A stretch of DNA of 64,000 nt from Fusibacter sp. 3D3 (GTDB lineage: Bacteria > Bacillota > Clostridia > Peptostreptococcales > Acidaminobacteraceae): assembly GCF_001748365.1 (NCBI RefSeq), contig NZ_BDHH01000007.1, forward strand, positions 124,001-188,000, in the 5' to 3' direction. The translations under genes and the position numbers were made by a program. The notes below the pieces were generated by a model, which searched no databases, was not told the origin of the DNA, and saw only the letters and a program-made list of their open reading frames with translations. This document shows, piece by piece, positions 44,276 through 64,000 of this stretch. How positions within the stretch are numbered: position 1 is the stretch's first letter; each line of letters opens with the position of its first letter.

Positions 44276-44283
44276 GCATAAAG

Positions 44284-44315
44284 GGGTTTTCAGCTTTTGG
44301 CTTCTGACACTCTAA
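44284..44315 (+). repeat. Copy 1 of a short intergenic repeat
   Basis: The core TTTTGGCTTCTGACACTCTAA-like segment (44295-44315) matches a segment at 51082-51102 at 19 of 21 bases, and the flanking GGGT also matches. Both copies lie just downstream of stop codons, next to terminators. Confidence 0.5.
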
Positions 44316-44332
44316 GCTTTGAAGCAGATCAA

Positions 44333-44363
44333 AAAGCATTCGCTTAGGCGGATTCTTTTTTTT
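44333..44363 (+). terminator. Intrinsic terminator after sigA
   Basis: AAGCATTCGC pairs imperfectly with GCGGATTCTT around TTAG, followed by eight T residues. Confidence 0.7.
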
Positions 44364-44376
44364 GGTATAACCCTTG

Positions 44377-44416
44377 GGGAGATGAACCCCACTTCTTAAA
44401 GCGGGGTTCATCTCCC
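44377..44416. repeat. 14-bp perfect inverted repeat
   Basis: GGGAGATGAACCCC and GGGGTTCATCTCCC are exact complements around a 12-base loop. There is no T-tract on either side, so it is not a standard terminator. The sequence is unusually GC-rich for this spacer. Confidence 0.7.
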
Positions 44417-44475
44417 TAATTCAAAGGGCGTATTAAACCAAGCACTATCATTAAAGAAGAACTGAGGCACAATAA

Positions 44476-45243: not shown

Positions 45244-45264
45244 CGAAAAGTAAAGGAGGGTTTT

Positions 45265-46068
45265 ATGGTTACTTCAGTGGGCAAAATACTTAAATTATTA
45301 GAGCATATCGCACCTTTAAGTCTAGCCGATGCATGGGATAATTCCGGATTGCTCATCGGGCATTCAGACCGCGAGGTAGACCGAATTCTAATTGCACTAG
45401 ATCTTACAGAAGAGGTCTTAGAAGAAGCACTTGACGAAGGGTTCGATCTAATTCTCACACATCATCCTTTAATTTTCAACCCTATAAAGCAGATCACCAC
45501 TGAAACGCGTATTGGCAAACTCATCATTAAATTAATTGAAAACAGGATCAGTCTCATTTCGCTTCATACCAATATGGATCGTTCTTTTGAAAACGGGATT
45601 AACCGTTACGTAGGGGAAAAACTTGAATTAGAGGATATGACTATTCTTGTGAAAGATGAAGCGTATGTAGGTTATGGTGTCGTGGGTAATTTTAGTGCAG
45701 CTCAGCCTTTAGAAAATGTTGTGGCCACTTTAAAAACGCTATTTAATCAAAAAACCATAAAACTCACAAACGGCACTTTAGATAAACCTATAAGGCGTAT
45801 CGCTTTTTGTAGTGGTGCTGGAGCTGATTTTATCGAACAAGCATTAAGTGAACATGCGGATTTATATATTACGGCTGATGTCAAACATCATGAGAGTCAA
45901 CTGGTAAACGGTTCTACAATGACCTTATTAGATGTAGGGCATTATGAAAGCGAAACTGTTTTCTTAGAGCGTCTTAAAGCGCTTTTAGATGAGCAAATTG
46001 CCCTTAAAAATTACGATGTTTTTACGATGGTCACCGAAACAGAAAAAGCACAATTCAAATATGTATAG
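45265..46068 (+). CDS. Nif3-like dinuclear metal centre protein (YqfO family)
   Basis: The protein belongs to the Nif3/GTP cyclohydrolase I type 2-like family. Metal ligands are in LILTHHPLIF, SLHTNMD and DVGHYESE. It begins with the usual APLSLADAWDNSGLLIG. At 267 residues it lacks the middle PII-like insertion found in longer YqfO proteins, so it is the short form. The biochemical role is unsettled. AAAGGAGGG precedes the ATG, 21 bases after trmK, so the two are cotranscribed. Confidence 0.92.
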   Translation: MVTSVGKILKLLEHIAPLSLADAWDNSGLLIGHSDREVDRILIALDLTEEVLEEALDEGFDLILTHHPLIFNPIKQITTETRIGKLIIKLIENRISLISLHTNMDRSFENGINRYVGEKLELEDMTILVKDEAYVGYGVVGNFSAAQPLENVVATLKTLFNQKTIKLTNGTLDKPIRRIAFCSGAGADFIEQALSEHADLYITADVKHHESQLVNGSTMTLLDVGHYESETVFLERLKALLDEQIALKNYDVFTMVTETEKAQFKYV

Positions 46069-46076
46069 AAAATGGA

Positions 46077-46112
46077 GCTCCACTTTAAGCTGAAGAGAAC
46101 CTCTTAAAGTGG
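46077..46112 (+). other. Hairpin after the Nif3 gene
   Basis: CCACTTTAAG pairs exactly with CTTAAAGTGG around about 13 bases. There is no T-tract, so it is a weak end signal or an mRNA-stabilising structure. The arm sequence resembles the CTTAAAGCGGGG part of the inverted repeat at 44377. Confidence 0.5.
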
Positions 46113-46220
46113 GATATATAAATTCATGATATTTTAACGATATATTGCTTTAAGTCTCTTCAAATTTTGGGTATCATGAAAGCAATAGGATAAAATAAAG
46201 CGTTAGGGGATCGTGTTGCC

Positions 46221-49133: not shown

Positions 49134-49495
49134 TGATTGTAGACGATTCAACCGTTATGAGAATGAATTTAAAAAAAATACTCACGGATGTTGGACATAC
49201 TATTGTTGCAGAAGCACAAAATGGAAAAGAAGCGTGTGCACAATACGAAAAGTATAGGCCAGATTTAGTGACTATGGATATTTCAATGCCTGTAATGACA
49301 GGTGTGGAAGCTACAAAAGCCATCGTAAGTAAATTTCCAGATGCTGTAATTGTAATGATCAGCGCACTTAATCAAAAGAAGATGGTGTACGATGCCTTGA
49401 AAAATGGGGCTAAACATTATATTATTAAACCGATTGATCAAGAAAAAGTCATCAGTGTTCTAAATGAAGTTTTGCGAACTGATGTGTCGACTTAA
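49121..49495 (+). CDS. CheY-like single-domain response regulator
   Basis: The 124-residue protein is one receiver domain. The acidic pair is in IMIVDDS, the phospho-acceptor Asp in VTMDISMPVMTG, the Ser/Thr switch in VMISAL, and the Lys in YIIKPID. With no output domain it probably carries phosphate between the CheA-like kinase and a target. The obvious source is the overlapping upstream kinase, and its CheX-like domain could dephosphorylate it. The next gene is an HD-GYP protein. Whether this regulator touches the flagellar motor cannot be told, and no flagellar genes are visible. Confidence 0.93.
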   Translation: MARIMIVDDSTVMRMNLKKILTDVGHTIVAEAQNGKEACAQYEKYRPDLVTMDISMPVMTGVEATKAIVSKFPDAVIVMISALNQKKMVYDALKNGAKHYIIKPIDQEKVISVLNEVLRTDVST

Positions 49496-49515
49496 AAAGA
49501 GGAGAATTGCTTGAA

Positions 49516-51033
49516 ATGATAAATAATGTGCTTTTGATCTCCAAAAATCAACTGTTATTAGAACAGCTTCAATCAAACATTGACCCCAATGAGTATGCGT
49601 TAACGCAAACCAGTGGTAGCGATATCATGCAAAAGTGTTTTTTGTTATCACCGTGTTATATCTTTGTTGATCTTAATGATCTCAGTGAACAAATGATTCA
49701 AGTCATTAAGACCATCAACGATCTTGATTATATCCCCATTCTTTATATAGGTGAAGTTTCTTCTGCAAAAAGGATGGAAATTGCACTTGAAGATGAATTG
49801 CTACTGCCTTTGGATGCCTTTATTTTACAGTCGAGTTGCCTTTTGAAACAAGGCATTCAATTTAAAAGGCAATATAATAAAGTTTCACAGGCGTATGACA
49901 CAATGGATGCGTTGACCACAGATACTAAAAGCATTATGGCAAATTACTTAGAACACAATACTCTAGATCCTGTAAAACTCTATAATGACATCATCAATAG
50001 TATTTTCATGGACAATCCCCTTTTGAATAATAAACCTCAGTATGTCTGGATCTTGATAAAGGTTGGCGATAATTACAAAGCCAATTTATATCTTCGTGAA
50101 AAGCCTGATGATAACTATGTAAATATAAGTATTTCTAAAGTCCCCATGGATCATTCTTTTGGATTTGATGTTTTTGCAGAAAACGGCTTTAAGATTAATT
50201 TGTTTGAATCTCACTTATCGGATATAGACTCTACATCTAAAATGTTTCCGGACGAAATGCTGAATGACATGGCCGCTGTTGAAAATTTTGCGGGTTATGG
50301 TCTGGATCAAATGGTCGTTATTGGATGTAATTACGAACACTCGGTCAGCAGCTATGAAGCCTCTATTTTAAAATCTGCTACAGTTACACTGGATTTACTG
50401 GAAAACATTCAGATGAAGTTATCTGACGTCGAAGGCGCTTTTAATTACACGTTAGATGCGCTTGCAAGAGCGGCAGAGGCCAGCGACGATTCAACAGGCC
50501 AGCATATTAAACGCGTTAATGAATATGCAAAGTTCATTGCCATGGCATTAGGTCTTGAGAATTCATTTGTAAAAGAAATTGCGAAAAGCGCCCAAATGCA
50601 CGATGTGGGTAAAATTTACGTGGACAATAGTATCCTTCAAAAAAAAGGGCCTCTTGATGAAAGGGAATTTTATGAAATGCAACAACACACGCTTTATGGT
50701 GAACGGATCGTTGGCGCCTCTGATTATTTAAAAATGGCATCGGAGATTGCACTGAACCATCACGAAAAATTTGATGGCAGTGGTTACCCCAATCAAAAAA
50801 AAGGTGAGGCAATACCACTTTCAGCTCGAATCGTTTCACTTGCAGATGTCTATGATGCGCTTAGAAGTTCAAGATCATATAAACCGGGATTTACGCATGA
50901 AAAAGCTTGTGATATAATCCTAAACGGAGATGGCAGAGTTATGCCAGAGCATTTTGATCCTCAAGTTTTAGCGGTCTTTAAAAAAGAACATTTAAGCTTC
51001 AACTCTATATTTGAAGCGCATAATTATAATTAA
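49516..51033 (+). CDS. HD-GYP c-di-GMP phosphodiesterase with N-terminal receiver-like domain
   Basis: HD-GYP proteins hydrolyse cyclic di-GMP. The C-terminal domain (about 310-490) has HIKRVNEYA, the HD pair AQMHDVGKIYV, and NHHEKFDGSGYPN (the GYP signature), all intact. The N-terminal 120 residues look like a divergent receiver: YIFVDLND keeps a possible acceptor Asp but the usual N-terminal acidic pair is absent. The middle (about 145-300) may be a GAF-like sensor. I start at the ATG at 49516, 11 bases after GGAG. A TTG at 49507 is only two bases from it. It is cotranscribed with the receiver. Confidence 0.9.
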   Translation: MINNVLLISKNQLLLEQLQSNIDPNEYALTQTSGSDIMQKCFLLSPCYIFVDLNDLSEQMIQVIKTINDLDYIPILYIGEVSSAKRMEIALEDELLLPLDAFILQSSCLLKQGIQFKRQYNKVSQAYDTMDALTTDTKSIMANYLEHNTLDPVKLYNDIINSIFMDNPLLNNKPQYVWILIKVGDNYKANLYLREKPDDNYVNISISKVPMDHSFGFDVFAENGFKINLFESHLSDIDSTSKMFPDEMLNDMAAVENFAGYGLDQMVVIGCNYEHSVSSYEASILKSATVTLDLLENIQMKLSDVEGAFNYTLDALARAAEASDDSTGQHIKRVNEYAKFIAMALGLENSFVKEIAKSAQMHDVGKIYVDNSILQKKGPLDEREFYEMQQHTLYGERIVGASDYLKMASEIALNHHEKFDGSGYPNQKKGEAIPLSARIVSLADVYDALRSSRSYKPGFTHEKACDIILNGDGRVMPEHFDPQVLAVFKKEHLSFNSIFEAHNYN

Positions 51034-51047
51034 ATTTTTAATAACGC

Positions 51048-51128
51048 ATGTCCATAAACAATCTATAGAGGGTCGCTCAAATTTTGACTTTTGACACTCT
51101 AATTATAATTGTTTTATGGACTTTTTTT
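51048..51128 (+). terminator. Large terminator after the HD-GYP gene, containing repeat copy 2
   Basis: GTCCATAAACAAT pairs with ATTGTTTTATGGAC (one bulge) and runs into TTTTTTT. An inner hairpin pairs GTC with GAC. The loop holds the 51070-51102 repeat. Confidence 0.8.
51070..51102 (+). repeat. Copy 2 of a short intergenic repeat
   Basis: It matches the sequence at 44284-44315, with 19 of 21 bases identical over the TTTTGACTTTTGACACTCTA region. It sits in the loop of a terminator. Confidence 0.5.
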
Positions 51129-51201
51129 ATGAATTGAATGGCACTTGTCGGGTATAAAACACTTATGGGGCAATTATGAATAAAAAGGGGGAAGTGATTA
51201 T

Positions 51202-52092
51202 GTGGATTGGAAATCAATATCGTTTGAAGACAAAAACATTTTTGAAGAAATGATAAAATTAAAGCCTTATCCGCTGAGCGATTATAATTTTACACATCTG
51301 AATATCTGGAAAACGGCTTACAAGCTCTCTTATACAATATTGAATGGGAACCTTGTGGTGAGAGGGAAAGATCCATTTTCAAATGAAGAATATGTCTACA
51401 TGCCTATGGGGATCGGCAATTTACACGCTTCAATTGAAGCTTTAAAAAATGAGTTTAAGGGGATCCATAAGCCTTTGATCATCAAGGCTTTAACACCCAA
51501 AATGATGGCTGAAATCAAATCGGCAAATCCACGCCAATTCAATTTTACAATCAATCGCAATGAATTTGAATATATTTATAAAATTAAGCAAATCGCGTCG
51601 TACGACGATAAAAAGTTAAGACGCAAGAGAGAACTTTGCAAGCATTTCGAAACCCATTATCCGGCCGAGTTTATCCAATATGAAACGGTTCACTATCCGC
51701 TCGTTTTGGATCTGATCGAGAAATGGCATCATGACCGAGAAGAAGATGATCTGATCGTGCAATCTGAAAAGGAGGGCATTCTCAACATCTTAGATCACTT
51801 AGAACACTTAAAATGCGAAGGTTTTATGCTCATGGTATCGGGTGAGGTCATAGGGGTTATCATTGCCGAACCGCTGACTGAAGATATAGTGCTCGTTCAC
51901 TATGAAAAAGGGATAAGATCATATAAAGGGGTATATGATATCTTAAAACGCAATGTATCACGCTATTATCAAAATGAGTTTAAATATATCAGTTTAGAGG
52001 AAGATATGGGTATTGAAGGTCTGCGAATTGCAAAGGAACTCTACAGACCAAATCATTTAATTATTAAGGGGACAATAACATTTATAGACTAG
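51202..52092 (+). CDS. DUF2156 (MprF C-terminal-like) protein
   Basis: The 296-residue protein resembles DUF2156, the aminoacyltransferase-like domain of phosphatidylglycerol lysyltransferases, with a double GNAT fold. Visible features are LKPYPLSDYNFTHLNIWK at the start, a central KLRRKRELCKHFE, and C-terminal YISLEEDMGIEGLRIAKELYRP. No membrane domain precedes it, so it is the stand-alone type common in Clostridia. Its substrate is unknown. The start is a GTG after GGGGGAAG. It lies 15 bases before the MFS-sensor gene, so the two probably share a transcript. Confidence 0.85.
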   Translation: MDWKSISFEDKNIFEEMIKLKPYPLSDYNFTHLNIWKTAYKLSYTILNGNLVVRGKDPFSNEEYVYMPMGIGNLHASIEALKNEFKGIHKPLIIKALTPKMMAEIKSANPRQFNFTINRNEFEYIYKIKQIASYDDKKLRRKRELCKHFETHYPAEFIQYETVHYPLVLDLIEKWHHDREEDDLIVQSEKEGILNILDHLEHLKCEGFMLMVSGEVIGVIIAEPLTEDIVLVHYEKGIRSYKGVYDILKRNVSRYYQNEFKYISLEEDMGIEGLRIAKELYRPNHLIIKGTITFID

Positions 52093-52107
52093 GGGGCAGT
52101 TGATTAT

Positions 52108-55100
52108 ATGAGACAACACTATTCCAAAAAGACGATTATTGTACTGCTCATGATCTTTTTTATAGCTACAATTGGGATAAGCTTCACTTATACCCATTTT
52201 AAAGTTAATCCTTTTGAGAACATTCACCTGACCAATACTTCTGGCGTTGCCTTGGGGGAAGATCATAGCATTTACATTGTAAGCGATTCCAATAGAGCCA
52301 TTCGTAAAATAGCCAATAATGATCAGCTCATATACACGATTGAAGGTGGCAAAAGAACAGCTGACAGTTTTTACACAGCCAATGAAATCGATACGGATGA
52401 AAATGGAAATTTATATGTGATGCACAGTCGATGGGACGATACGGGCTCGTATCTAGAAACAGAAACGATTAGTGTCTTTGATAACACAGGGAAATTTATC
52501 AAGCAAGTCTTTAAACTTCCAGATGAATCTCAGTCAAAATTAACCCCTGCTATGAAAGGATTAAAGTACTTTGAGGGACATTTATATTGGTTTGTACTGG
52601 TAAACGAAGGGATTAACCTTTATTCTGACAAATCGGAAGAACCCATGGGCTTTTTTGCTTTTGAAATGGCAGATCAAATGATACAAGATGTTGATATGAG
52701 GGATGAAACGCATTGGTTTTATGCTTCTAAACAAGGCTTTATCCAATCTGTGGATACAAATAAAATGAAGGTTCAAACGCTCTTTGATGCCCGATTACTC
52801 AGTCAAGAAAATCCCTCTAGTATATGGGGCATTCAATATGATGCCCAGTCTAAAACCTTATTTTTTAACGATCTTGGACAATTTGGCCTCTTTAAAATCA
52901 ATGGAAGTCAAGTTGAAAAAGTCTTTTCAAGTAGTGAATACAGCACGGTAAACGATGAAGTTTATTATAATTTCGATGTATTAAGTGCATCCTATATCGC
53001 CGTCAATGATGAGAGCATTACACTTAAATCTGAGGCGGGCGCTTATAAGAGTATCTCAGAGCTAAAACCTTCGTCCTCTATTTTGATCCTTCGAATCATT
53101 GCATGGGTTTCAATCTTCTTAATGATTTTAAGTGCCTATTTGTTAATAAATTGGCTCTTGAAAGATGTCTTGAAAAATGGCATACCAAGAGGTTTCAAAA
53201 AAACGGCCGCTATTATTTTAGTGGTTTTAATTGCAACGATTCTAACGTCATCACTTGCGATTAATTTCTACAATGAGATTTTGGTGGAACAAGCTACGAA
53301 TAACTTGAAATTACTCGTTCAAGGTTCTAAATTTGTCATACATGGCGATGCCGTGGATGCCATCAAACAGCCCTCTGATTTTTATACCGAAGAGTATCAA
53401 GTGGTTTATGATGATCTCCAACGCATGGTCAACTATAATCAAGAAGTTTGGGACGAAAACCTATATACGGCGCTCTATACGATTACAGATGACCGTTACT
53501 ATGCACTTATGTACAATGATAATAGTGTGACCCCTTATTATACCTTCAACGCTTGGACTGACGATCCCGATTTTAATTACTTTTACGACGCCTTTCAAGG
53601 TAAAATCACACATGGGACGGAAACGGATGCCGATGGTGAATGGCTTTTCGCTATGGGCCCTGTTTACAATTCAAAAGATGAAGTTGTTGCAATCATTGAA
53701 GTGGGCATGAACAAGTACATTTTTGATGAATGGAATAAAAATATCGTCAATAAAATCATTACCGACATCATATCCATTACCATCATCATAATCTTATTGA
53801 TTTCTGAAGTGACATTTTTATCCAATTGGTTGGAGCAAAGAAAAGCACATCGATTGCAGAGTGCATCGTCAAAAGCACATGAAATCAATCCAGAATTTAA
53901 TGAACTCAATGCCTTAAGAACGCTTGCTTTGCTCACTTATATTGTCATCTTCATGTGTACGGCGTTCATTCCTCTAATGGCAAAATCTATTTACAGTCCT
54001 ATTGGCAATCTATCCATGTCGATGGCGATTGGACTCCCTATATTTACAGAAGTGTTGTTTGCGGCTATAACCATTGTCATTGCTGGGTTTATTGCAGAAA
54101 AGAAAGGTTGGAAACTCATATTTTATATGGGAATCATCATTTTAATTGGAGCTGCCATTGCCACAGCTTTGACGAGATCACTATTGGTTTTTATCATTAT
54201 CAGAGGGATTGCAGGCATTGGCAATGGGTTTATACAGATGACGATGCACGCTTTTGTGAACACGGGGAAGACGGTGGCACAGAGAAACGAAACCTTCGCA
54301 AATATGATGTCCGGTGCCATTGCTGGGGTCAATCTCGGCGTCGTCTTTGGTGCGAATCTTGTGGATAAGATGGGCTATTTTAATGTTTTCTTTATTATGG
54401 CTGGAATAGGTGTCATCGCCATATTATTTGAACGCCTATTTTTAAGACAATACGACACCATGGCGTTTCATATTGAAGAGGCAGAACCGCCTATAACGGA
54501 GGATACCCTTGATAAAAACAATCAGAAAATGTCATGGCTTTATTATTTTTCAAGAAAGAGTATTGCCGCGTTTCTCACGCTTATACTCGTGCCTGCACTT
54601 TTGTGTTACATGTATTTAGAATATTTTTTCCCATTGTTTGCTGAGGCAAAAGGATTGACGACTTCAATGATCGGAATTGTTTTCTCACTTTATGGCCTGT
54701 TTATCGTTTATTTTGGTCCATCCATGAGCACTTTTACAGAAAAAACTTTTGGGGTGAAAAATGCTTCTGCCATTGCAAGTATATTAACAGGCATTTCATT
54801 GCTTGTGTATGCTGTTACTGGAACACTTTTAGGCGCTGTACTGGCCGTATTGATCTTGGCAATTTCGGATAGCTTTGGCGACAGCGTTTACACCACTTAT
54901 TTCTTAGCGATTAAAGAATCACAAAAAATCGGCAAATCCATTGCAGCGGGTTATTTAGAATTTTTCTCTCAGATTGGGAAGATGCTTGGCGCGCTTGCCT
55001 TTGGTATTGCCATTGGGTTTGGAGATCAACTTGGAATTGGTATAATAGGGGTGATCACTGTTGGATTTGGAGTGTTATTCATTCCAATTGGAACTCAAGT

Positions 55101-55125
55101 AGTTGTTTCGGATACGGATGAATAA
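52108..55125 (+). CDS. Fusion of propeller-like ectodomain, Cache-like domain and MFS transporter
   Basis: This 1005-residue protein is a chimera. A signal-anchor helix (about 9-28) precedes a propeller-like ectodomain (35-320) with NHL/SMP-30-type blades such as EIDTDENGNLYVMHS. Two membrane helices (325-351, 367-387) are followed by a Cache-like domain (390-545, with DADGEWLFAMGPVYNSKD) and another helix (549-571). A full 12-helix MFS region ends it (about 602-1000, with IRGIAGIGNGFIQM). The first 570 residues match the layout of the protein at 56396. The transported substrate is unknown. It could be a transporter gated by, or signalling through, an extracellular sensor. Confidence 0.8.
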   Translation: MRQHYSKKTIIVLLMIFFIATIGISFTYTHFKVNPFENIHLTNTSGVALGEDHSIYIVSDSNRAIRKIANNDQLIYTIEGGKRTADSFYTANEIDTDENGNLYVMHSRWDDTGSYLETETISVFDNTGKFIKQVFKLPDESQSKLTPAMKGLKYFEGHLYWFVLVNEGINLYSDKSEEPMGFFAFEMADQMIQDVDMRDETHWFYASKQGFIQSVDTNKMKVQTLFDARLLSQENPSSIWGIQYDAQSKTLFFNDLGQFGLFKINGSQVEKVFSSSEYSTVNDEVYYNFDVLSASYIAVNDESITLKSEAGAYKSISELKPSSSILILRIIAWVSIFLMILSAYLLINWLLKDVLKNGIPRGFKKTAAIILVVLIATILTSSLAINFYNEILVEQATNNLKLLVQGSKFVIHGDAVDAIKQPSDFYTEEYQVVYDDLQRMVNYNQEVWDENLYTALYTITDDRYYALMYNDNSVTPYYTFNAWTDDPDFNYFYDAFQGKITHGTETDADGEWLFAMGPVYNSKDEVVAIIEVGMNKYIFDEWNKNIVNKIITDIISITIIIILLISEVTFLSNWLEQRKAHRLQSASSKAHEINPEFNELNALRTLALLTYIVIFMCTAFIPLMAKSIYSPIGNLSMSMAIGLPIFTEVLFAAITIVIAGFIAEKKGWKLIFYMGIIILIGAAIATALTRSLLVFIIIRGIAGIGNGFIQMTMHAFVNTGKTVAQRNETFANMMSGAIAGVNLGVVFGANLVDKMGYFNVFFIMAGIGVIAILFERLFLRQYDTMAFHIEEAEPPITEDTLDKNNQKMSWLYYFSRKSIAAFLTLILVPALLCYMYLEYFFPLFAEAKGLTTSMIGIVFSLYGLFIVYFGPSMSTFTEKTFGVKNASAIASILTGISLLVYAVTGTLLGAVLAVLILAISDSFGDSVYTTYFLAIKESQKIGKSIAAGYLEFFSQIGKMLGALAFGIAIGFGDQLGIGIIGVITVGFGVLFIPIGTQVVVSDTDE

Positions 55126-55130
55126 GAGAA

Positions 55131-55189
55131 GCCCCATCGACAGTTTCGACCCATTAAAGAGATGGACCATGTCGATGGGGCTATTTTTT
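55131..55189. terminator. Bidirectional terminator between convergent genes
   Basis: GCCCCATCGAC pairs exactly with GTCGATGGGGC around 29 bases (inner CCAT/ATGG), followed by TATTTTTT. The T-tract overlaps the stop codon of the minus-strand gene. Confidence 0.85.
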
Positions 55190-56300
55190 AGGGTTTGCCA
55201 ATGAGGTTGTAAAGCATTTCAATTTGCTCAGGTAATGGCAGTTTAAGAGGATAGTTGACCGGCAGATAATTGGGGTCTTCTAAACCATTGAAAACAGAAA
55301 GTGTATAGGCATATTTTTCATCGCCGTAAGTTTCAAGTGAAATTTTATACAAGTAATCTCCAGGAGGCACTATAAAGAGTGTATAATCATGACTCATTTT
55401 TTCTTGTGGCTCAACGGTACTTGGAGGTGCATTCATTTTGGGGACGTATACAGATACGGTTTCAGTCTCCTCAGCCGTTTCACTATAGGGATCATCATAG
55501 CGTACTACGCCGATTAAATCCTTGACATAAGGCTTATTGCTCTCAGCCGTAGAGTTAGAAAACAGGGTCGTGACATAAACGATGACCATGAGCAAGATTG
55601 AAAGATAGACCAACGTTCTAAAGTGATTTTTAATCCAAAGGACTACTGCTAAAAGTTTTTCATAAAACCAAGGTTCTTGATGTTCATTTATTGTCCCTAA
55701 AAAATACTTATAATCAGCAAGCATACTGATATAATCTTTATAGATTCCAGCCTCGCAATTCATAATAAAAACGTTCAGCTCATCGTGCTCTTCAGTTAAA
55801 GCTTCAATTTGGGTGGCTACTTTTTTCTGAACCGATTTGAAATGGTCAAAGGAATCTGGGTTTAGTAAATCCAAAGTAACATTAAAATGCAAAATTTTAT
55901 TTGAATCAACTCTTAAATTATCAGATTTTATGAGCGTATATTTAATGAAATTGGGTAAAGTACTATCAAGCGAAAGTTTTGCCAGAAGCTTCAGTATAAA
56001 ATCTTTTTTAGAGGCATCATTGAACTGGCTGTGATGGATTGCAGGTTCATCTGAATAATCCTTAAAAATTAAGTAGAGATCGCCAAAAGCAACAAATGAT
56101 TCTACAAACGGTAACGTCTGACTAAATCGATCTAAAAATTTTAAATAATACTTGATAAGGGCTCGATCTTTAATTTGATGAATTCTGTAGTGTGTCTCTT
56201 GTTTTTTGTGCGGCTCTAAGCATCTATAAATGGTCATACTTGCATTCGTAGAAACCACATCCACAACTACGTATTTATCTGAAATAAGTGCACCTTGCAT
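55188..56300 (-). CDS. Pseudokinase-like membrane protein with extracytoplasmic LysM-like domain
   Basis: I infer three parts in this 370-residue protein. The N-terminal 210 residues resemble a protein-kinase fold without catalytic motifs: IYRCLEPHKK and LPFVESFVAFGDLYLIFKDY match small-lobe strands, but no HRD or DFG is seen. One membrane helix lies at about 230-250. The outer part ends in a LysM-like segment, DYTLFIVPPGDYLYKISLETYGDE through YPLKLPLP, which would bind peptidoglycan. The start is the ATG at 56300, seven bases after GGAGG. A TTG at 56303 is less likely. It is the only minus-strand gene in this region. Confidence 0.65.
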   Translation of the reverse strand: MQGALISDKYVVVDVVSTNASMTIYRCLEPHKKQETHYRIHQIKDRALIKYYLKFLDRFSQTLPFVESFVAFGDLYLIFKDYSDEPAIHHSQFNDASKKDFILKLLAKLSLDSTLPNFIKYTLIKSDNLRVDSNKILHFNVTLDLLNPDSFDHFKSVQKKVATQIEALTEEHDELNVFIMNCEAGIYKDYISMLADYKYFLGTINEHQEPWFYEKLLAVVLWIKNHFRTLVYLSILLMVIVYVTTLFSNSTAESNKPYVKDLIGVVRYDDPYSETAEETETVSVYVPKMNAPPSTVEPQEKMSHDYTLFIVPPGDYLYKISLETYGDEKYAYTLSVFNGLEDPNYLPVNYPLKLPLPEQIEMLYNLIGKP

Positions 56301-56395
56301 CAAATCACCTCCAAACTATATGTTACTTATATCACTTTATCAGAAAAATAAACGGTTAAGTTCAAATATCTATTTTTAGAAGGGGAGCGCACAAT

Positions 56396-59143
56396 ATGAG
56401 AAAAATTTTGGTTTTAGTACTGTTGACTGTATTGTTGAGTGGCATTTTTACATACTGGATTGAAAATCTCGATCTAGAGCATGTTATTGACGTTTTAGCC
56501 GCTCCAGATGACGAGATGGTCATCCTTCAAAAAGAAACTTCTGAAAGTATGATAGAATCTTTTATCAACTATCTTAGACCCACCTATAATCTCATACGCA
56601 TTTCTAAAAAAGGTGAAATTCTAAAATCGTATCCATTGCCTAAGGATGCTAAATCCACTTTTTCTGATTATGATAATCTCAGTATGGATTCAGAGGGCAA
56701 TCTGTATCTTCACAGATCTTTAAAAAATGCGGATAATTACTATGTCCAATCTGAAGAAATTATTAAAATTTACCCTGATACTTTACAAATTAAAACCCTT
56801 TATAAGGTTGATTATCACTCAACAGGTGCTGTGGAGTATGCCTTGATCAACAAAGCTTATCTTGTTGATCATCATCTTTTTGTGATTCAAAAAACGGCTG
56901 CAGATCCATCAAATGTAATCATATCTCAAATTAATATTTACAATGAAGAAGTTCAGGTGATCAAAGATTTAAAATTTGACCCCACCTTATACGTCAAGGA
57001 TATCTTGTATTTAAACAGCGGGAACGTTATATTTTCAACAGTTAAAGGGTTGCTTTATCAATATTACGATGGCAATTTTGAAGTGATCCAATATGAAGCG
57101 ATGCCAGAACGTATGCAAGTTTCAAAACTCAACTCATACGATCATTCCACATTTGCATTTATGAATGAACTGACAAGTGATGTCGTCACGATTGATACAG
57201 ATCAAAAGCGCTATGAAGTGATTAGAAGTGGCATGGATGACGTCAGTAAAATCGAGAAACTCAAATATAAAGATGCCAATTTAGTGACCCTGAGAAACTC
57301 AAAGAGTATCACTGGAAATGTGCGTTTTAACGCTCAAGGGAATCGGTTTGTATTTATAGATAGAGATGAATCTATAATTGCCATGAGTGACATAGAGTAC
57401 AGTGGCACTCATCATATGCGGACTTTCTTTAAGCACTTTCTGATCATCGGACTATTGGCTTTAATTGTCGGATTTGTGATGTACGCTTACGAAAAGAGTA
57501 GAGGTTCTCTCATTATAAAATTTGGAACTATTTTACTGCCTTTAGTGCTCTTGATTCCAATGATTTCGCTTTCAGTAAGCTTTGGCTATTTTACGAATTT
57601 AGCGAAGAATGATTTGCTCGCAGAATTGTTTAGTTTTTCAAAAGAACGTGCTTCTAAAATTACGGTGGCTCATCTAAAAGAAATTGATGGTCTTGAAGAT
57701 TATGCCAATCCAGGCTATATGGCCTTAACCCAAGAAAGAAAAGTTAACGGTCAGGAATTTAATGATCTTGCGTTAAAGACTTATGATCGTTGGTACTATT
57801 CTGTAATTTACAAATATGAGGGCGATAAAATACATGTCGTAACAGGAGATGAAATTGAATTTTGGGCAACAACCCAATACCTTTATGGCGAACGTTCACA
57901 TCAATCTTATATAAAAGCAGCTACTGAAAATAGAACCGTTTTAGCGGATAATTCAGATATAACAGGCGAATGGGTTTTTGCAGTAACCCCCATCAGAGAT
58001 GCGCAGAATCAAGTCATCGGTTTGCTTGAGATCGGAACGGGTAAAGAAAGCTACACTTACTATATTCAAGGCTATTATGGTAGTTTGGTCACCTTAAACC
58101 TCGTAATCGTCAGTTTTATTTTATTGCTCATGTCAATCGTCATCTACCGTGTTATTTTACCGCTTCGCAATTTGAATGACTCTGTTGACGAAATCAGCAG
58201 TGGCAATTGGGGCGTTACGGTCCCCGTTCACACTCATGATGAGATCGGTGAACTCTCGGGCATGTTCAATAAAATGTCGCTGTTTATCAAAGATTATATT
58301 ACAGAACTTACGAAAATGAATGAAATTTACTATAAATTTATTCCGCTTAAGTTCTTTGAACTGCTCCATAAGAAAAGCATCACAGAAGTGGCGCTTGGCA
58401 ATTATACAAAGCAGGAAATGACTGTGGTTTATATCAATACTGCCAATTATTTTGATCTCGTAAGGGGCAAAACATCTAAAGAGCAACTGGATATCTTAAA
58501 TAAACTCTTTGAAGAGTATGCAAGGAGTATACACGCTCAAAATGGACTTGTGGGTGAATTTAGAAACGCTGGCGTGCTAGCTTTATTTACCAAAGAAGAA
58601 GAAGCAATGTCTACGGCCTCTATGATCATGCAACATATCAGTGCACTTGACTTACCTGTAAAAACCAATATCAGTATCCATTTAGGAGAGGTCCTATTGG
58701 GCATCGTTGGAGATGAAAATAGATTGACAACATCGGTTATAAGCGAGTGTGTCAATGAAGTCACTGAAATGAATAAAATTGCAACTAAGTTTGATACAGG
58801 CGTGCTCTTAAGTGATACTTTGAAGGCTAAGATCCATCAGTCAGATGATATGATCCGATATATAGGGCAGTTGGAAGATGAGCAATCCGATAAATCGATA
58901 AGTCTTTTTGAGTGGCTAGCAACTTTACAAATTGCAACACAGAAAGATTTTGTGAAATCAAAAGAACGGTTTGAATCCGCATTGCGGTTTTATGAAGCCG
59001 CACGTTATGCTGAGGCCAAAAAAGATTTCATAAGCGTTATAAAAGCAAATGGTCGTGACAAAGTTTCTAAAGAATATCTTTTCAAGTGTGAAAAACTCGA
59101 TCTAGATCCAAATACTTTAGAGAAACCGCTAGGACGATACTAA
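56396..59143 (+). CDS. Propeller-like/Cache sensor with HAMP and degenerate class III cyclase domain
   Basis: This 915-residue protein begins with a signal anchor and a propeller-like ectodomain (about 35-335). Two membrane helices (345-364, 375-400), a Cache-like domain (405-555, with DITGEWVFAVTP), a helix (563-585) and HAMP (586-640) follow. The cyclase-homology domain (about 670-840) has VVYINTANYF where the first metal Asp should be, and EFRNAGVLALF where the second should be, so both look lost. A TPR-like tail (850-905) ends it. It is likely a non-catalytic signalling protein. Its first 560 residues share their plan with the MFS fusion at 52108. The MORN gene follows closely. Confidence 0.8.
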   Translation: MRKILVLVLLTVLLSGIFTYWIENLDLEHVIDVLAAPDDEMVILQKETSESMIESFINYLRPTYNLIRISKKGEILKSYPLPKDAKSTFSDYDNLSMDSEGNLYLHRSLKNADNYYVQSEEIIKIYPDTLQIKTLYKVDYHSTGAVEYALINKAYLVDHHLFVIQKTAADPSNVIISQINIYNEEVQVIKDLKFDPTLYVKDILYLNSGNVIFSTVKGLLYQYYDGNFEVIQYEAMPERMQVSKLNSYDHSTFAFMNELTSDVVTIDTDQKRYEVIRSGMDDVSKIEKLKYKDANLVTLRNSKSITGNVRFNAQGNRFVFIDRDESIIAMSDIEYSGTHHMRTFFKHFLIIGLLALIVGFVMYAYEKSRGSLIIKFGTILLPLVLLIPMISLSVSFGYFTNLAKNDLLAELFSFSKERASKITVAHLKEIDGLEDYANPGYMALTQERKVNGQEFNDLALKTYDRWYYSVIYKYEGDKIHVVTGDEIEFWATTQYLYGERSHQSYIKAATENRTVLADNSDITGEWVFAVTPIRDAQNQVIGLLEIGTGKESYTYYIQGYYGSLVTLNLVIVSFILLLMSIVIYRVILPLRNLNDSVDEISSGNWGVTVPVHTHDEIGELSGMFNKMSLFIKDYITELTKMNEIYYKFIPLKFFELLHKKSITEVALGNYTKQEMTVVYINTANYFDLVRGKTSKEQLDILNKLFEEYARSIHAQNGLVGEFRNAGVLALFTKEEEAMSTASMIMQHISALDLPVKTNISIHLGEVLLGIVGDENRLTTSVISECVNEVTEMNKIATKFDTGVLLSDTLKAKIHQSDDMIRYIGQLEDEQSDKSISLFEWLATLQIATQKDFVKSKERFESALRFYEAARYAEAKKDFISVIKANGRDKVSKEYLFKCEKLDLDPNTLEKPLGRY

Positions 59144-59161
59144 CCTATAGAGGTGAGCTTA

Positions 59162-60694
59162 ATGGGCAATTTGATTAAATATATGTTCAAAACTGCAAAA
59201 ACTGCATTTTTAAGACCGCTTAAATTGCTCAAAAGAAAATTGCGAAAGAGTATATTTCTTAAAAGCAAAGTTGGGAAAGTCATTAAGACCACGGTAAAAG
59301 ATACCATTGCGGTTTTAAAGCGTGCGCCAGAACAAAAGTCCGATTATGTACTCATCGGGAATAAATACTATGCTAAAAGATTAGTCATTGTACTATGTGT
59401 CTTATTTTTACTGCTCATTGCAATCAGTCAAACCGTGATTGTGCCTTTGGTAAGAGGACGCCTTTACACACCTACATTCATGCTTACGGAACCCTTATTA
59501 GAGACGTATACGGGTAAGGTTAAACTCATTAATCGCAGTGGCATTACTGTGTTTGAAGGCAGAATGGTCGAAGGAAAATGCCAAGAAAATGGCATTCAAT
59601 ATGATGATCTCGGACAGTTAGTTTACAGAGGACAGTTTAGAGAAGATGTCTATGCTGGTGAAGGCACGTTATATGCTCAAAATGGAGATGTCATTTATAA
59701 AGGCATCTTTGAAAACAACACTTTTAATGGCATTGGTATTTTATATCAAAATAATCGCTCGACTTTGTACGAGGGGACATTTGAAAATGGATTATTTACG
59801 GGTTCTGGGAAACTTTATAATGACAAGAATCAGCTCATTTACTCAGGTGCATTTACACAAGGTCTTCAAAACGGTTATGGTGTGTCCTATTTTGACAACG
59901 GTATGATTCAGTATACCGGTAGCTTTTTGAATGGCAAGTATCATGGGGAAGGGACTCTGATGACCCTAGAGGGTTTAAAGCTTTATAGTGGTCAATTTTC
60001 AAATGGTGTCTTTGAAGGTTCTGGCAAATTATTTTTCGATAATGGTCAATTGGCATATGAAGGCAATTTTGCAAGCGATCAATACAACGGCTTTGGGCAA
60101 CAGTATTCTGAGGAGGGCAAGTTGATTTATAGAGGTAACTTTGCTTTGGGCTATTACTCGGGCGAAGGCAAACAATACAATGCTTCCACAGATCAGCTCA
60201 TCTATGATGGCAACTTTGATAAGAGTTTATTCAACGGCATTGGCACTTATTATATTCAAAACGAAAAAGTTTATACAGGGGATTGGCTTGAAGGCGATGC
60301 GCTTTTTGAATCTTTACTTGGACTCAGCAGCGGAGATGTTCGGCAGCGCTTTTTAGAATCAGGAGAAGTGATTCAGTCAGAAAATTATTATGTCCTTTCA
60401 TATTCGAAAGCAAAGTGTGACTTCTACTTTGTGTATCCAACGGATGTGCTTGAGCCCATTCTCTATAAAATCGTGATCAAAGACTTCAATTTAACGCATA
60501 AATGGCAAAAGGGCATGAGTCTTGACGAGGTCAAGGCGAAACTCGAAGATTCCACAGCTTCTGCTAAAAGCGTAGAGGGTCATGCGTACTTTGTGCTACA
60601 GGTGCCTCAAGCCAGTTCACAAATGAATATGTACTTTGATTTCAATACACTTGAATTGATCTTTTATGAATATGAAACCCCTATAGGAGGCTGA
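59162..60694 (+). CDS. Membrane-anchored MORN-repeat protein
   Basis: The 510-residue protein has a very basic cytoplasmic head (about 1-65), one membrane helix (about 72-97) and a long outer part. The latter holds about ten MORN-type repeats (about 130-385) of the form YEGTFENGLFTGSGKLY, YTGSFLNGKYHGEGTL and YEGNFASDQYNGFGQ. A C-terminal globular domain (about 395-510) follows with a DFYFVYPTDVLEP segment. MORN repeats usually serve as scaffolds or lipid/protein binders. I start at the ATG at 59162, six bases after AGAGGTG. A GTG at 59153 overlaps that site. It lies in a tight run with the cyclase-like and TolC-like genes. Confidence 0.85.
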   Translation: MGNLIKYMFKTAKTAFLRPLKLLKRKLRKSIFLKSKVGKVIKTTVKDTIAVLKRAPEQKSDYVLIGNKYYAKRLVIVLCVLFLLLIAISQTVIVPLVRGRLYTPTFMLTEPLLETYTGKVKLINRSGITVFEGRMVEGKCQENGIQYDDLGQLVYRGQFREDVYAGEGTLYAQNGDVIYKGIFENNTFNGIGILYQNNRSTLYEGTFENGLFTGSGKLYNDKNQLIYSGAFTQGLQNGYGVSYFDNGMIQYTGSFLNGKYHGEGTLMTLEGLKLYSGQFSNGVFEGSGKLFFDNGQLAYEGNFASDQYNGFGQQYSEEGKLIYRGNFALGYYSGEGKQYNASTDQLIYDGNFDKSLFNGIGTYYIQNEKVYTGDWLEGDALFESLLGLSSGDVRQRFLESGEVIQSENYYVLSYSKAKCDFYFVYPTDVLEPILYKIVIKDFNLTHKWQKGMSLDEVKAKLEDSTASAKSVEGHAYFVLQVPQASSQMNMYFDFNTLELIFYEYETPIGG

Positions 60695-60695
60695 T

Positions 60696-62714
60696 ATGCT
60701 CATTAAGAAGACATTGCTCCTTTTACTAATCTTAACACTGATTATGCCACAACTCCCCATAGACGATGCCAGTAGAACTATGGATATGAAAGTGGCGATT
60801 TCACTTGCACAACAAAATAGCGCTGCGATTAATTTGGTGAAACTTGACCTCATTAAAAAAGGGGTTGAAAGAAGGCAAGCGGTTGAAGGTCTTCAAGATA
60901 TAAGAGAAAAAGAAACCACAGTGAGATTTGCATTGCTCTTTGACATCTCTTTTCCTGAAAAACACGCCATGCCAAAAGAGATAGAACTCATCATGAAGCT
61001 TCCTAAAATTGATAATGATATTCAAAAATTAAAAGAGCAATATAAATTTGAAGTTCATAAATTGGAGTTTGAAGTCAAAAATGCTTTTCTGAGTATTTTA
61101 GAAAAAGAAGCCGTCCTAAAATTTGAAACCGATAAAAATAAAGATTTAGCTTCGACTTATGAAAGGTTATATAAAGGGTATTTGGCGGGAGAAACAACTC
61201 AAGCAGATTTAGAATTAATCAAAGCTTCATTGGATCAATCAAAAGACACGCTAACCAAAGTGACCCTTGAATTTGAAACATCGAAAGAAAAATTTTCTGA
61301 AATTATTGGAATCGATATTACAAGAGGCTATACCTTTAAAAATGAACTCATCGAGGTGAAGTTGACAAGAACGGATTTGGATGCATTAATTCAAATTGGA
61401 CTTTCAAAGGATTATCAGGTTTATGTGGCGACACAAGACCGAAAACTTTCTGAAAAAGAAGTCACAGAAGTCTATGATATTTACAAAAACTACTATGGTT
61501 CAAAAGTGAATATACTCTCTTCAGAGTTAAATAAACCTAAAATTGATTATGCGGCGCTTTTTCAAAATTATGAGCAAATGCTTCAAAATATAGATGCCAA
61601 ATGGCAAAAAGTGTACGTCATCAATCTCTTATTTTTCAAGATCAAAATACCAATGAGATGGTTTCAAGGCGAATATACGGCACTGAGATATTTTGAAAAC
61701 GAAAAATACCCTCTGATCGTCGCACTGGGCGAACGGGATAAAAAGAGAGTCGCAGAAGCCGCGATGATCACTTTGACGACTCAAAAGATCAAGGACAGCT
61801 ATGATGCGGTCAAGCAAATGGATCTCGTGATCAAGCAAAGTATCGAAACGATTGCGCTTGCCACTTCAAGTTACGAACAACTGAAAAAAGATAACCTCGC
61901 GGGTATCGTTTCTTTTGCAGAAGTTCAGCAGGCAAAAGAGGTCCTAAAGGAACTCGAACTCGCTCAATTTCTATCGAAAATTTCACTTTCAAAATTCATA
62001 GCGGCACTTGATTTTAATACCTCTGGAGGCGTGGCAGCGCTCACAAGCAACGCGGACTTTGCTACGGGGAACTATGACTCTGGTGTGTCTAATGTCAAAT
62101 CTATGGAGGGGAGTAGTGAACCCTTTTGGTATATTGAAACACCCTATAGCAGCCTCAAGTTCATATTCGGTGTAAATCTTTCTGCTGAACTACAAGTGAC
62201 ACATTACAGATTGTTTGATGCAAATGGGCTCCCCGTTGGGGGGCTGACGCCAATAGCGGAAACACTTGAGCATTTACCGCTTGCCTTTGATAGTTCATCA
62301 GAGTTGTCTGTTGTCTTATATACAAAGGATTTACCTAAATATAAGTCTAAAATAGAAGGTGAAGGTTATCAAGGGACTTTAAAATTGGAACCTATAAAAA
62401 CCAATCCTAAAGATTTAAAATTACCTATTGGCACTTTTAAGTTGGCTCAATCTGATTTATTGAGAAGTAGTCTAGCCATTAGCATAAGTGATCAAATTGG
62501 ATATGATCACTATAGAATAATCAAGAGCGATGGTTCACCAATAAATGACCTTGTTAAAAAAGGGACTCCCCTTGAAGATTTAACCTTGATTCTTACGGAC
62601 GTTGAACAATATCAAATAGAACTCTTACTTGGTGAAGATCATGTCATGAAATTAAGTCTTATACCAGAAACTGAACCAGTTCAACAAGGCGTTTTAGTCT
62701 CAACAGAAAAATAG
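60696..62714 (+). CDS. TolC-family-like coiled-coil exported protein
   Basis: The 672-residue protein has a signal peptide (about 1-22, without a clear lipobox). Long paired coiled coils follow, with the internal repeat typical of outer-membrane efflux proteins: MKVAISLAQQNSAAINLVKLDL at the start (in parts), YERLYKGYLAGETTQADLEL in the first half, and SYEQLKKDNLAGIVSFAEVQQAKEVL in the second. The last 170 residues are beta-rich and not TolC-like. In monoderm Firmicutes such proteins cannot form an outer-membrane pore, so a wall-spanning or scaffold role is more likely. AGGAGG precedes the ATG, which lies one base after the MORN stop. Confidence 0.75.
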   Translation: MLIKKTLLLLLILTLIMPQLPIDDASRTMDMKVAISLAQQNSAAINLVKLDLIKKGVERRQAVEGLQDIREKETTVRFALLFDISFPEKHAMPKEIELIMKLPKIDNDIQKLKEQYKFEVHKLEFEVKNAFLSILEKEAVLKFETDKNKDLASTYERLYKGYLAGETTQADLELIKASLDQSKDTLTKVTLEFETSKEKFSEIIGIDITRGYTFKNELIEVKLTRTDLDALIQIGLSKDYQVYVATQDRKLSEKEVTEVYDIYKNYYGSKVNILSSELNKPKIDYAALFQNYEQMLQNIDAKWQKVYVINLLFFKIKIPMRWFQGEYTALRYFENEKYPLIVALGERDKKRVAEAAMITLTTQKIKDSYDAVKQMDLVIKQSIETIALATSSYEQLKKDNLAGIVSFAEVQQAKEVLKELELAQFLSKISLSKFIAALDFNTSGGVAALTSNADFATGNYDSGVSNVKSMEGSSEPFWYIETPYSSLKFIFGVNLSAELQVTHYRLFDANGLPVGGLTPIAETLEHLPLAFDSSSELSVVLYTKDLPKYKSKIEGEGYQGTLKLEPIKTNPKDLKLPIGTFKLAQSDLLRSSLAISISDQIGYDHYRIIKSDGSPINDLVKKGTPLEDLTLILTDVEQYQIELLLGEDHVMKLSLIPETEPVQQGVLVSTEK

Positions 62715-62725
62715 AGGGTGATCGA

Positions 62726-64000
62726 ATGAAAAAAAATAGAGCTCTACTGATATTATTAATCTTAATATTGATGTTCCATGTAAGCTTTGCAGAGGCAAGA
62801 CCTGCTGCGAAAGCTTTTCCGACGCGTTCGATAATTATCGGTTCTTATGTCATCGATTACAAAGCTTTGAATCCTAAAACCATTAGTTTAGCTCAGGATA
62901 CTGTAGAAAGTTCCGGTCAAAAGAAGATTTATTACAAATCTGATCTGACAAGTCAAAAAATCTGGGTGGACATCACTAATGGTGAGCGCATCAGCGATAT
63001 CTCCGATAAATCCACAAGTATCATCTCTGATGCCATGATAGATGCACTGCCGCTTACGCACTGGATAAAAGCGGATGCTAGTGTCATCGTTTTTGGAACT
63101 GGAGAAGTAAAGTCCATAAATGATATGCATTCACTTTTAGACCCCAAAGCTCATGAACTCCTTCAGAAGCTTTCTATTGACTATGACCTAGCGAAAAATC
63201 TTTTCGATGCAGATGATGAAGATGTCGTTTCTGAAATGACACAAAATATTTTAGCACCTGTATTAATGCCTTTAAGCCAAGCGACCATAGAAGGCTATGA
63301 TCAGCAACTTGCTGCATGGGATGCTTTTTCAGCTTATTTAACCGCAAATGGCGGTTCAGATGCGGCTATTAATCTGGTGTCTGCTGAAAAAGGAACGACT
63401 TTTATAAATCGTGAAATCGCTGTTAACACTGCACTTCTAGGACGCCTTAATGATGCGGCAAACAGTGCTGTTAAAAAGGGTTTAAACGCGCTCAATGGAG
63501 ATATTTGGGAATCTATAGGGAAAGTTGAAGCCCAAATAATAGAGCTTCAAGAGGGTCTTAATATTGATGAGAGTTCATTTTTAGCCCTCTACAGGGCAAC
63601 ACAAGAAAAAAAATTACTGCAAGCAATCGCAAGCAAAGATTACAAAACAGCCGAATCAAGTGTTGAAATAATAACGCATGCAGATCATATTTCAGCGGGA
63701 TTAATCATTGATAAACCTTCTGAATTAGAGATTCTCACAATTACTTTTGGACAAAGCATCCAAAAAATAAAAGCAATTGCAGCTGAAGGCAATGGGATAC
63801 CTTATTACACAGCACTCAAAAACGGGGAACCCGCTGCAACACTTAAAGTGCTTATCGAAGCACAAATATCAAACTTAAAAGAAGCCATTTCAGAACTTCA
63901 GCGCATCATGGATGATACTATCGCGCGGCTAGATCAATCAGAAGCTCAGCAAGTTTTTTTGGGTCAAGCGGTCGAAGCAATGTCGAAAGCTCTAGATGCG
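62726..64000 (+). CDS. Secreted protein of unknown function, cut by the window end
   Basis: The frame opens at an ATG at 62726 after GAGGGTG, 11 bases past the TolC-like stop, and stays open to the last base (425 codons), so the gene continues beyond the window. It begins with a signal peptide, MKKNRALLILLILILMFH, then SFAEA. The visible mature part has an opening beta-rich part (about 30-110) and then Ala-rich helices with a coiled-coil look (about 130-425). I do not recognise a family. Its place after the TolC-like gene suggests it is exported or wall-associated and works with it. Confidence 0.8.
   Translation, partial: MKKNRALLILLILILMFHVSFAEARPAAKAFPTRSIIIGSYVIDYKALNPKTISLAQDTVESSGQKKIYYKSDLTSQKIWVDITNGERISDISDKSTSIISDAMIDALPLTHWIKADASVIVFGTGEVKSINDMHSLLDPKAHELLQKLSIDYDLAKNLFDADDEDVVSEMTQNILAPVLMPLSQATIEGYDQQLAAWDAFSAYLTANGGSDAAINLVSAEKGTTFINREIAVNTALLGRLNDAANSAVKKGLNALNGDIWESIGKVEAQIIELQEGLNIDESSFLALYRATQEKKLLQAIASKDYKTAESSVEIITHADHISAGLIIDKPSELEILTITFGQSIQKIKAIAAEGNGIPYYTALKNGEPAATLKVLIEAQISNLKEAISELQRIMDDTIARLDQSEAQQVFLGQAVEAMSKALDA

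What the first reader, a model, noticed from the sequence alone, without database searches (positions are those of the whole stretch)
51202..64000. Envelope gene cluster of unfamiliar composition
Seven genes encode a DUF2156 protein, an MFS fused to a sensor ectodomain, a pseudokinase/TM/LysM-like protein, a sensor ending in a degenerate cyclase domain, a MORN scaffold, a TolC-like coiled-coil protein and a secreted helical protein. Six are on one strand. The last four are separated by only 18, 1 and 11 bases. Nearly all products are membrane-bound or exported, and several carry enzyme folds that look catalytically dead. I know of no described system with this set. Inference: a wall-spanning sensing or assembly complex.
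Basis: partly seen in the sequence, partly recalled or inferred. Interest (0 to 1): 0.8.

Follow-up and report, generated by a model that had tools for sequence, protein, structure and literature searches.

The report
Envelope module of a contractile injection system
The odd membrane genes at the end of this window are the front part of a locus for a phage-tail-like injection machine in a bacterium with a single membrane, and they probably tie that machine to the cell surface.

Summary
The genes are real, but the window stops just before the explanation. The run 56396-64000 continues on the same strand (gaps of 1-14 bases, then overlaps) into Pvc16, u251 and a PAAR-like gene, the start of a contractile injection system (CIS) locus with AAA+, sheath, tubes, hub, spike, gp25, baseplate and an eCIS_core cargo candidate. 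In 33 CIS loci read (32 picked by Pvc16, one by the TolC-like protein), a membrane-MORN protein occurs in 19, the sensor in 19, both in 18; 13 loci, mostly of other CIS types, have neither. In a 398-genome sample, 8 of 10 genomes with sensor-type hits carry Pvc16, itself in 15. A TolC-fold protein with a secreted helical partner joins in a subset, yet 0 of 20 genomes show Omp85, so no outer membrane is expected. Cyclase and kinase folds look dead. DUF2156 is not conserved with CIS; the MFS-sensor is an occasional accessory. Best explanation: a dedicated envelope module that senses outside signals and docks or fires the CIS at the membrane, as CisA does in Streptomyces, with unrelated parts. 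Association strong; mechanism inferred.

The parts
52108..55125 (+). MFS transporter fused to the same type of ectodomain as the sensor (accessory, not core)
   Evidence: MFS_1 3.3e-21; MFS with matching ectodomain also next to CIS in G405, G320 and G770; no match in the UBA6806 genome G406
55188..56303 (-). Pseudokinase, one TM helix (230-248), C-terminal LysM-like tail in the Fusibacter copies only
   Evidence: Profile vs PDB kinases E 0.0017; homologues in 14 of 33 CIS loci read, all 14 with the MORN protein (9 of the 14 are rows of the model)
56396..59143 (+). Sensor: TM, outer propeller-like domain, 2 TM, Cache-like domain, TM, HAMP, degenerate cyclase domain, TPR-like tail (tail by eye)
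   Evidence: sensor at 19 of 33 CIS loci; whole-genome searches
59153..60694 (+). MORN protein: basic N-terminus, one TM helix (78-96), MORN repeats predicted outside
   Evidence: MORN 1.6e-18; 19 of 33 CIS loci, 7 of these outside the model's rows
60696..62714 (+). TolC-fold exported protein: helical repeats kept, barrel-strand region short, two C-terminal beta domains
   Evidence: Foldseek to outer membrane factors E 7.2e-9; profile vs TolC in PDB E 7.8e-6 over about 80 residues; surveys
62726..64000 (+). Exported helical protein, 852 aa in full (ends at G000:C7:189284, outside the window)
   Evidence: a long protein follows the full-length TolC-like gene in 9 of 9 loci, hydrophobic N-terminus computed in 6, by eye in 3

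Best explanation
The pseudokinase, sensor, MORN, TolC-fold and helical genes are the envelope module of a CIS encoded directly downstream. Shown by sequence: they belong to the CIS locus, are found with a broad set of Bacillota CIS and not with others, and are membrane or exported proteins with apparently inactive enzyme folds. Inferred: the sensor reads a ligand or envelope state outside; its dead cyclase domain and the pseudokinase act as binding platforms on the inner face rather than enzymes; the MORN protein, with a short basic inner part, one helix and an outer repeat domain, is the docking anchor; signalling makes the CIS baseplate bind the membrane and fire. Where present, the TolC-fold and helical proteins extend the complex into or across the wall. 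The known TolC channel is too narrow for a CIS tube (recalled dimensions), so they are more likely a scaffold or sensor arm, or an effector path, than the tube's path.
For: CIS locus following the same run. Co-occurrence: class, TolC-like profile at E below 1e-30 in 5 of 15 Pvc16 genomes and 0 of 376 others, p 4e-8, 4 of the 5 outside the model, all 2.6-6.7 kb from Pvc16; family, the same 5 of 41 genomes for both (4 of the 5 are rows of the model, G421 is not), p 1.3e-6; phylum, sensor profile (which includes two MFS-sensor rows) in 8 of 15 Pvc16 genomes and 2 of 383 others, p 2e-11, or 6 of 13 and 2 of 383 without the two model genomes, p 9e-9. Order PFERN - pseudokinase - (sensor) - MORN - (TolC - helical) - Pvc16 - u251 recurs, with gaps in the set, across families. 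G025 holds two CIS; sensor and MORN lie only by one of them. Distances of MORN and Pvc16 correlate, r 0.77 (17 loci, one Fusibacter kept), MORN and PFERN 0.78 (15), both p 2e-4, the floor of the test. One TM helix starting at residue 51-86 in 16 of 19 MORN proteins (G421 has a second, G320 is cut by its contig, G631 differs). Omp85 in 0 of 20 module genomes while 7 of 14 control genomes ring. Precedents: CisA needed for firing in Streptomyces (PMC12237407, passages); a linked membrane protein gene tracks one group of haloarchaeal CIS, two of which act from the membrane, and the closest Cis11 relatives of haloarchaea are Bacillota (PMC11566945, passages).
Against: No contact between any module protein and a CIS protein was tested. 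Module content varies: full-length TolC-like in 9 of 33 loci, pseudokinase in 14, sensor missing in G631, MORN missing in G573; G724 has neither but sits among module loci in the tree. Two genomes hit the sensor profile without Pvc16: G681, and G692, whose hit is an MFS-sensor. Sensor-type genes could as well control expression or release. The link of PFERN to the thylakoid-CIS protein Cis19 is weak (profile E 0.03-0.06; a single type-B sequence gave no hit). Both structure models have low mean confidence (52.8 and 43.0) and low TM-scores (TolC matches 0.21-0.36 by query length). Congruent distances may partly mirror species history.
Confidence: 0.6

Rival explanations
1. Regulatory or release module: the sensor set controls when the CIS is made or when the cell lyses to release it, without touching the particle.
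For: HAMP and Cache-like sensor architecture; eCIS loci elsewhere have linked regulators such as GerE and histidine kinases (PMC8213781, passages).
Against: No DNA-binding or phosphotransfer domain recognised in the window's module proteins; cyclase and kinase residues look lost (by eye); MORN, TolC-fold and helical proteins make little sense as expression control; no lysis gene recognised among the locus proteins scanned.
Confidence: 0.2
2. A separate export or wall machine (TolC-fold channel with helper proteins) that exports CIS effectors or wall factors and merely shares the operon.
For: TolC fold; a long partner gene behind each of the 9 full-length copies; known TolC bore is too small for a CIS tube (recalled).
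Against: No ABC, RND or adaptor protein recognised among the locus proteins scanned; MORN and sensor occur with CIS also in genomes without a TolC-like hit (G202, G320, G025).
Confidence: 0.12
3. Unrelated neighbours that happen to sit next to a CIS locus.
For: Fits DUF2156, which is not kept at the other CIS loci.
Against: Order and linkage kept across families at 14-29% identity and strong co-occurrence.
Confidence: 0.03

Closest known systems
Streptomyces CIS with membrane protein CisA (PMC12237407, passages)
   Same: Gram-positive host; membrane protein encoded in the CIS locus; CisA is single-pass with a largely unstructured inner N-terminus and an outer C-terminal domain and is needed for firing: the MORN protein has a like layout
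   Different: One membrane protein described there, no sensor, pseudokinase, MORN repeats or TolC fold; CisA's outer domain resembles substrate-binding domains
Haloarchaeal membrane-bound CIS with Hbor_38620 (PMC11566945, passages)
   Same: A group of CIS marked by a linked membrane protein gene; particles on the cytoplasmic membrane; closest Cis11 relatives in Bacillota
   Different: Hbor_38620 has six TM helices and a ~150-residue inner domain; no multi-protein module of this kind in the passages seen
Thylakoid-anchored CIS of Anabaena (PMC8894136, passages)
   Same: Membrane-anchored CIS; PFERN weakly resembles its crown protein Cis19 (All3314) over about 55 residues
   Different: Anchored through baseplate and fibre extensions (Cis12, Cis13)
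Type VI secretion system
   Same: Idea of a CIS tied to a trans-envelope complex
   Different: No TssJ/L/M-like domain among 31 protein entries of the window end and CIS locus scanned with Pfam; tail genes of Pvc type (Pvc16_N, CIS_tube, eCIS_core)
TolC outer membrane factors
   Same: Two-repeat helical fold
   Different: Genomes without Omp85; barrel-strand stretches short; extra C-terminal beta domains

Membership tests
Contractile injection system (eCIS type) | Sheath, gp19 tube, gp25, Baseplate_J, hub, spike, Pvc16 cap, AAA+ in one locus | tested here: met
   the hub (Phage_GPD) and the second Baseplate_J match are below Pfam's cut-offs, the rest above
Contractile injection system (eCIS type) | Recognisable tail fibre gene (Pvc13/Afp13) | tested here: inconclusive
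   No fibre domain by Pfam in the genes scanned; fibres diverge fast, PFERN or the Tail_P2_I protein could have that role
Type VI secretion system | TssJLM membrane complex | tested here: not met
   None in 31 protein entries scanned; rest of the genome not searched for it
CisA-type anchor | Single-pass, unstructured inner part, substrate-binding-like outer domain | tested here: not met
   MORN protein is single-pass but its outer part is MORN repeats; no direct search with CisA was run
Membrane-bound CIS | Particles seen standing on the cytoplasmic membrane | not testable with these tools
   Needs cryo-tomography
TolC outer membrane factor | TolC helical fold | tested here: met
   44 Foldseek hits below E 1e-3: 38 outer membrane factors or their complexes by title, 6 titled only as a P. 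aeruginosa membrane protein
TolC outer membrane factor | Sits in an outer membrane | tested here: not met
   Omp85 in 0 of 20 module genomes; indirect, one marker only
Class III nucleotide cyclase | Two metal-binding Asp residues | tested here: not met
   By eye: first Asp not at its place in 12 of 12 rows, second kept only in G202; motif recalled
Protein kinase | HRD and DFG motifs | tested here: not met
   Not seen in the 9 aligned homologues (by eye)

The most novel reading that the evidence does not exclude
A trans-envelope injection system of single-membrane bacteria: living Bacillota cells hold a phage-tail-type CIS on the inside of the membrane with a wall-spanning complex built from a dead-cyclase sensor, a MORN anchor, a pseudokinase and a TolC-derived protein, and fire it outward through their own wall on demand, a Gram-positive counterpart of the T6SS that arose independently.
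Probability: 0.3. Interest if true: 0.9.

Novelty: new variant of a known kind. Interest (0 to 1): 0.74.

Why it matters
How CIS of single-membrane bacteria are held, triggered and fired is open; CisA is the one worked case in Gram-positives that my searches showed. This module gives named genes, a set of CIS in which they are kept, and an internal control (G025, with one CIS of each type), so anchoring and firing become testable. It also shows a TolC fold where no outer membrane is expected, and apparently dead cyclase and kinase folds recruited together to an injection machine.

Tried and rejected
Rejected: DUF2156 as a member. The TolC fold as path for the tube (recalled dimensions). The reading that all seven genes form one unit. 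Viral contig scans with the TolC-like and PFERN profiles found no relative. PDB search with u251 gave nothing, and with one type-B PFERN sequence nothing. No Rfam match in window 44000-64000. Promoter and terminator scans are near the shuffled means and were used only for the absence of an intergenic terminator. The kinase model (mean confidence 43) is used only as support for the profile result. Likeness of the pseudokinase to T7SS EssB/YukC is recalled; no YukC match appeared in Pfam.

Dropped or limited rows: G405 and G406 are taken to be F. ferrireducens (L002) and UBA6806 (L003) because contig length and position agree, and are counted once. Regions end with the contig for G199, G593, G242, G294, G510, G320, G421, G160, G729 and others, so some loci are judged on Pvc16 and a few genes; for the seven type-B genomes (G025, G136, G199, G201, G242, G294, G366) and the phylum genomes the whole-genome sensor searches cover this (one search scored two candidates a genome). 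G729 carries MORN and sensor on another contig than the CIS. G573's Pvc16 gene was not called as an ORF and is missing from the tree; G724 was labelled 'module' there although it has neither MORN nor sensor. G593 sits on a very long branch apart from the other 11 module-less rows. E-values are from iterated models and inflated. In one search the model rows include 12 of the 19 MORN loci, 10 of the 19 sensor loci and all 9 full-length TolC loci; out-of-sample support is (G025).

Papers: only passages were read; none was read whole. Searches for a prior description: none of which listed one by title or abstract start; the library lacks preprints and most subscription journals, so this absence is weak.
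Full report
WHAT IS THERE. The window is G000:C7:124001-188000 of a 5.1 Mb, 57-contig genome; its nearest named relatives by the TolC-like protein are Fusibacter ferrireducens (82% identity) and MAG UBA6806 (75%). The last ORF runs off the window and is 852 aa long.

I took the contig from C7:186000 to its end, 35.6 kb beyond the window. The run goes straight on into a CIS locus: Pvc16_N cap 14 bases after the helical gene, a 251-aa unknown (u251) and a DUF4280 gene (PAAR-like, recalled), each overlapping the one before, all on the + strand; then a reverse-strand AAA+ gene, two unknowns, sheath, gp19 tube, a 123-aa gene, second gp19 tube, a 1651-aa Asn-rich protein, CIS_tube, hub, spike, gp25, two Baseplate_J proteins, Tail_P2_I, a 585-aa protein I call PFERN after its N-terminus, and a 957-aa eCIS_core protein as cargo candidate. 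The hub and the second Baseplate_J match lie below Pfam's cut-offs. The lead came from L004, an Oscillospiraceae MAG in which homologues of the sensor, MORN, TolC-like and helical proteins (22-29% identity) precede Pvc16, a u251-like gene, DUF4280, sheath and tube.

IS IT MORE THAN CHANCE. Three surveys were sampled by taxonomy, not by the module. Class: 391 genomes, Pvc16 in 15; TolC-like profile at E below 1e-30 in 5, all among the 15 and 2.6-6.7 kb from Pvc16; three weaker hits (5e-7 to 2e-5) have no Pvc16. Family: 41 genomes, Pvc16 in 5 and strong TolC-like in the same 5; six further genomes gave only weak hits, best 4e-9. Phylum: 398 genomes, Pvc16 in 15, sensor profile at E up to 1e-40 in 10, 8 shared. 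Fisher p values are 4e-8, 1.3e-6 and 2e-11. Exceptions: G681 has the sensor beside short sheath and AAA pieces; G692 has an MFS-sensor on an 11-kb contig without recognised CIS genes.

WHICH CIS HAVE IT. I read gene order in 33 CIS loci: 32 chosen by Pvc16 (31 genomes, G025 has two) and L004 chosen by the TolC-like protein. MORN protein: 19 of 33. Sensor: 19 of 33 (15 long, 4 short forms in G202, G320, G510, G770). Both: 18. Pseudokinase: 14. Full-length TolC-like: 9, plus 3 short, weak ones in the same slot (G265, G631, G764). Neither MORN nor sensor: 13 (G025 first locus, G136, G199, G201, G242, G294, G366, G524, G611, G799, G732, G593, G724). The seven type-B genomes gave only short sensor hits in the Cache/HAMP range, none better than 7e-13, apart from G025, whose one hit (1.7e-89) is at its other CIS. 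Sheath and Pvc16 trees of the first survey separate module-bearing from module-less loci with full support (10 against 7 and 13 against 7 rows). With the phylum sample added, 11 of the 12 module-less rows group together (98/97), G593 alone on a very long branch; the tree is unrooted and has several long branches. In G025 sensor and MORN sit on the opposite strand just past PFERN of the module-type CIS.

ANATOMY. Sensor: four predicted TM helices in similar spacing in 14 of 15 long homologues at CIS loci (G764 has five); propeller-like outer part (Pfam NHL in 2 of 14 rows of A11, best E 0.0014), Cache-like part, HAMP, then a cyclase-like domain that Pfam sees in 2 of 14 rows and that lacks the first catalytic Asp in 12 of 12 (by eye). 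MORN: basic inner N-terminus, one TM, repeats outside. Pseudokinase: kinase-like by profile and by a weak model, without HRD and DFG (by eye), then one TM (none predicted in G265 and G764). TolC-like: signal peptide, two-repeat TolC topology with well-predicted helices but low mean confidence (52.8), Foldseek matches to outer membrane factors (low TM-scores), a short strand region where TolC has its barrel, and two C-terminal beta domains. Omp85 was found in 0 of 20 module genomes (8 of the 9 full-length TolC-like loci are in them; the L004 MAG was not tested), while the control set rings in 7 of 14. The MFS-sensor shares the sensor's ectodomain and recurs beside CIS in G405, G320 and G770.

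HOW IT MOST LIKELY WORKS. Shown: locus membership, co-occurrence and congruent divergence, predicted topology, loss of catalytic residues by alignment. Inferred: outside signal to sensor; allosteric change of the inner dead-enzyme domains; MORN and pseudokinase as docking sites for the baseplate; firing at the membrane. The TolC-like and helical proteins would be a wall extension in one subset. The particle's use (attack on neighbours, or death of the producing cell as proposed in Streptomyces) is open.

COMPARISON. CIS membership is met; T6SS membership is not. It works most like the CisA-dependent CIS of Streptomyces and the membrane-bound haloarchaeal CIS, but the anchor proteins described in the passages seen differ in architecture. 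Nothing describing this module appeared in the searches named in Tried and rejected.

CHANGES AFTER RE-CHECKING. MORN single-TM count corrected to 16 of 19; gp25 confirmed by a new scan; DUF2156 wording narrowed; model rows disclosed.

Noticed in passing
window 46221-51033: Upstream trio: one protein joining HAMP (weak), Hpt, histidine-kinase ATPase and CheX, then a receiver protein and an HD-GYP protein; also next to the cluster in G405.
   Followed up: no
L005:12217-17172 (beyond the window): 1651-aa Asn-rich ORF inside the CIS locus without Pfam match; 1819 and 1657 aa in the two close relatives, other unmatched ORFs of 446-1859 aa in the same slot of module loci.
   Followed up: no
L006:6185-7942: PFERN protein; up to three long copies at the end of type-B CIS loci; weak N-terminal likeness to thylakoid-CIS Cis19.
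   Followed up: partly
L006:7983-10856: 957-aa eCIS_core protein, candidate cargo of the CIS.
   Followed up: no
L006:11196-11988: Small overlapping gene pair that looks like a nucleotidyltransferase and HEPN pair just past the CIS locus (by eye).
   Followed up: no
G025 (L041/L042 and L057/L099): One genome with two CIS of different type, only one with sensor and MORN.
   Followed up: yes
L145-L150 (G799, G611, G524): A further CIS type with two sheath genes and no module.
   Followed up: no
L130 (G681): Sensor gene beside short sheath and AAA pieces, perhaps a decayed CIS locus.
   Followed up: no
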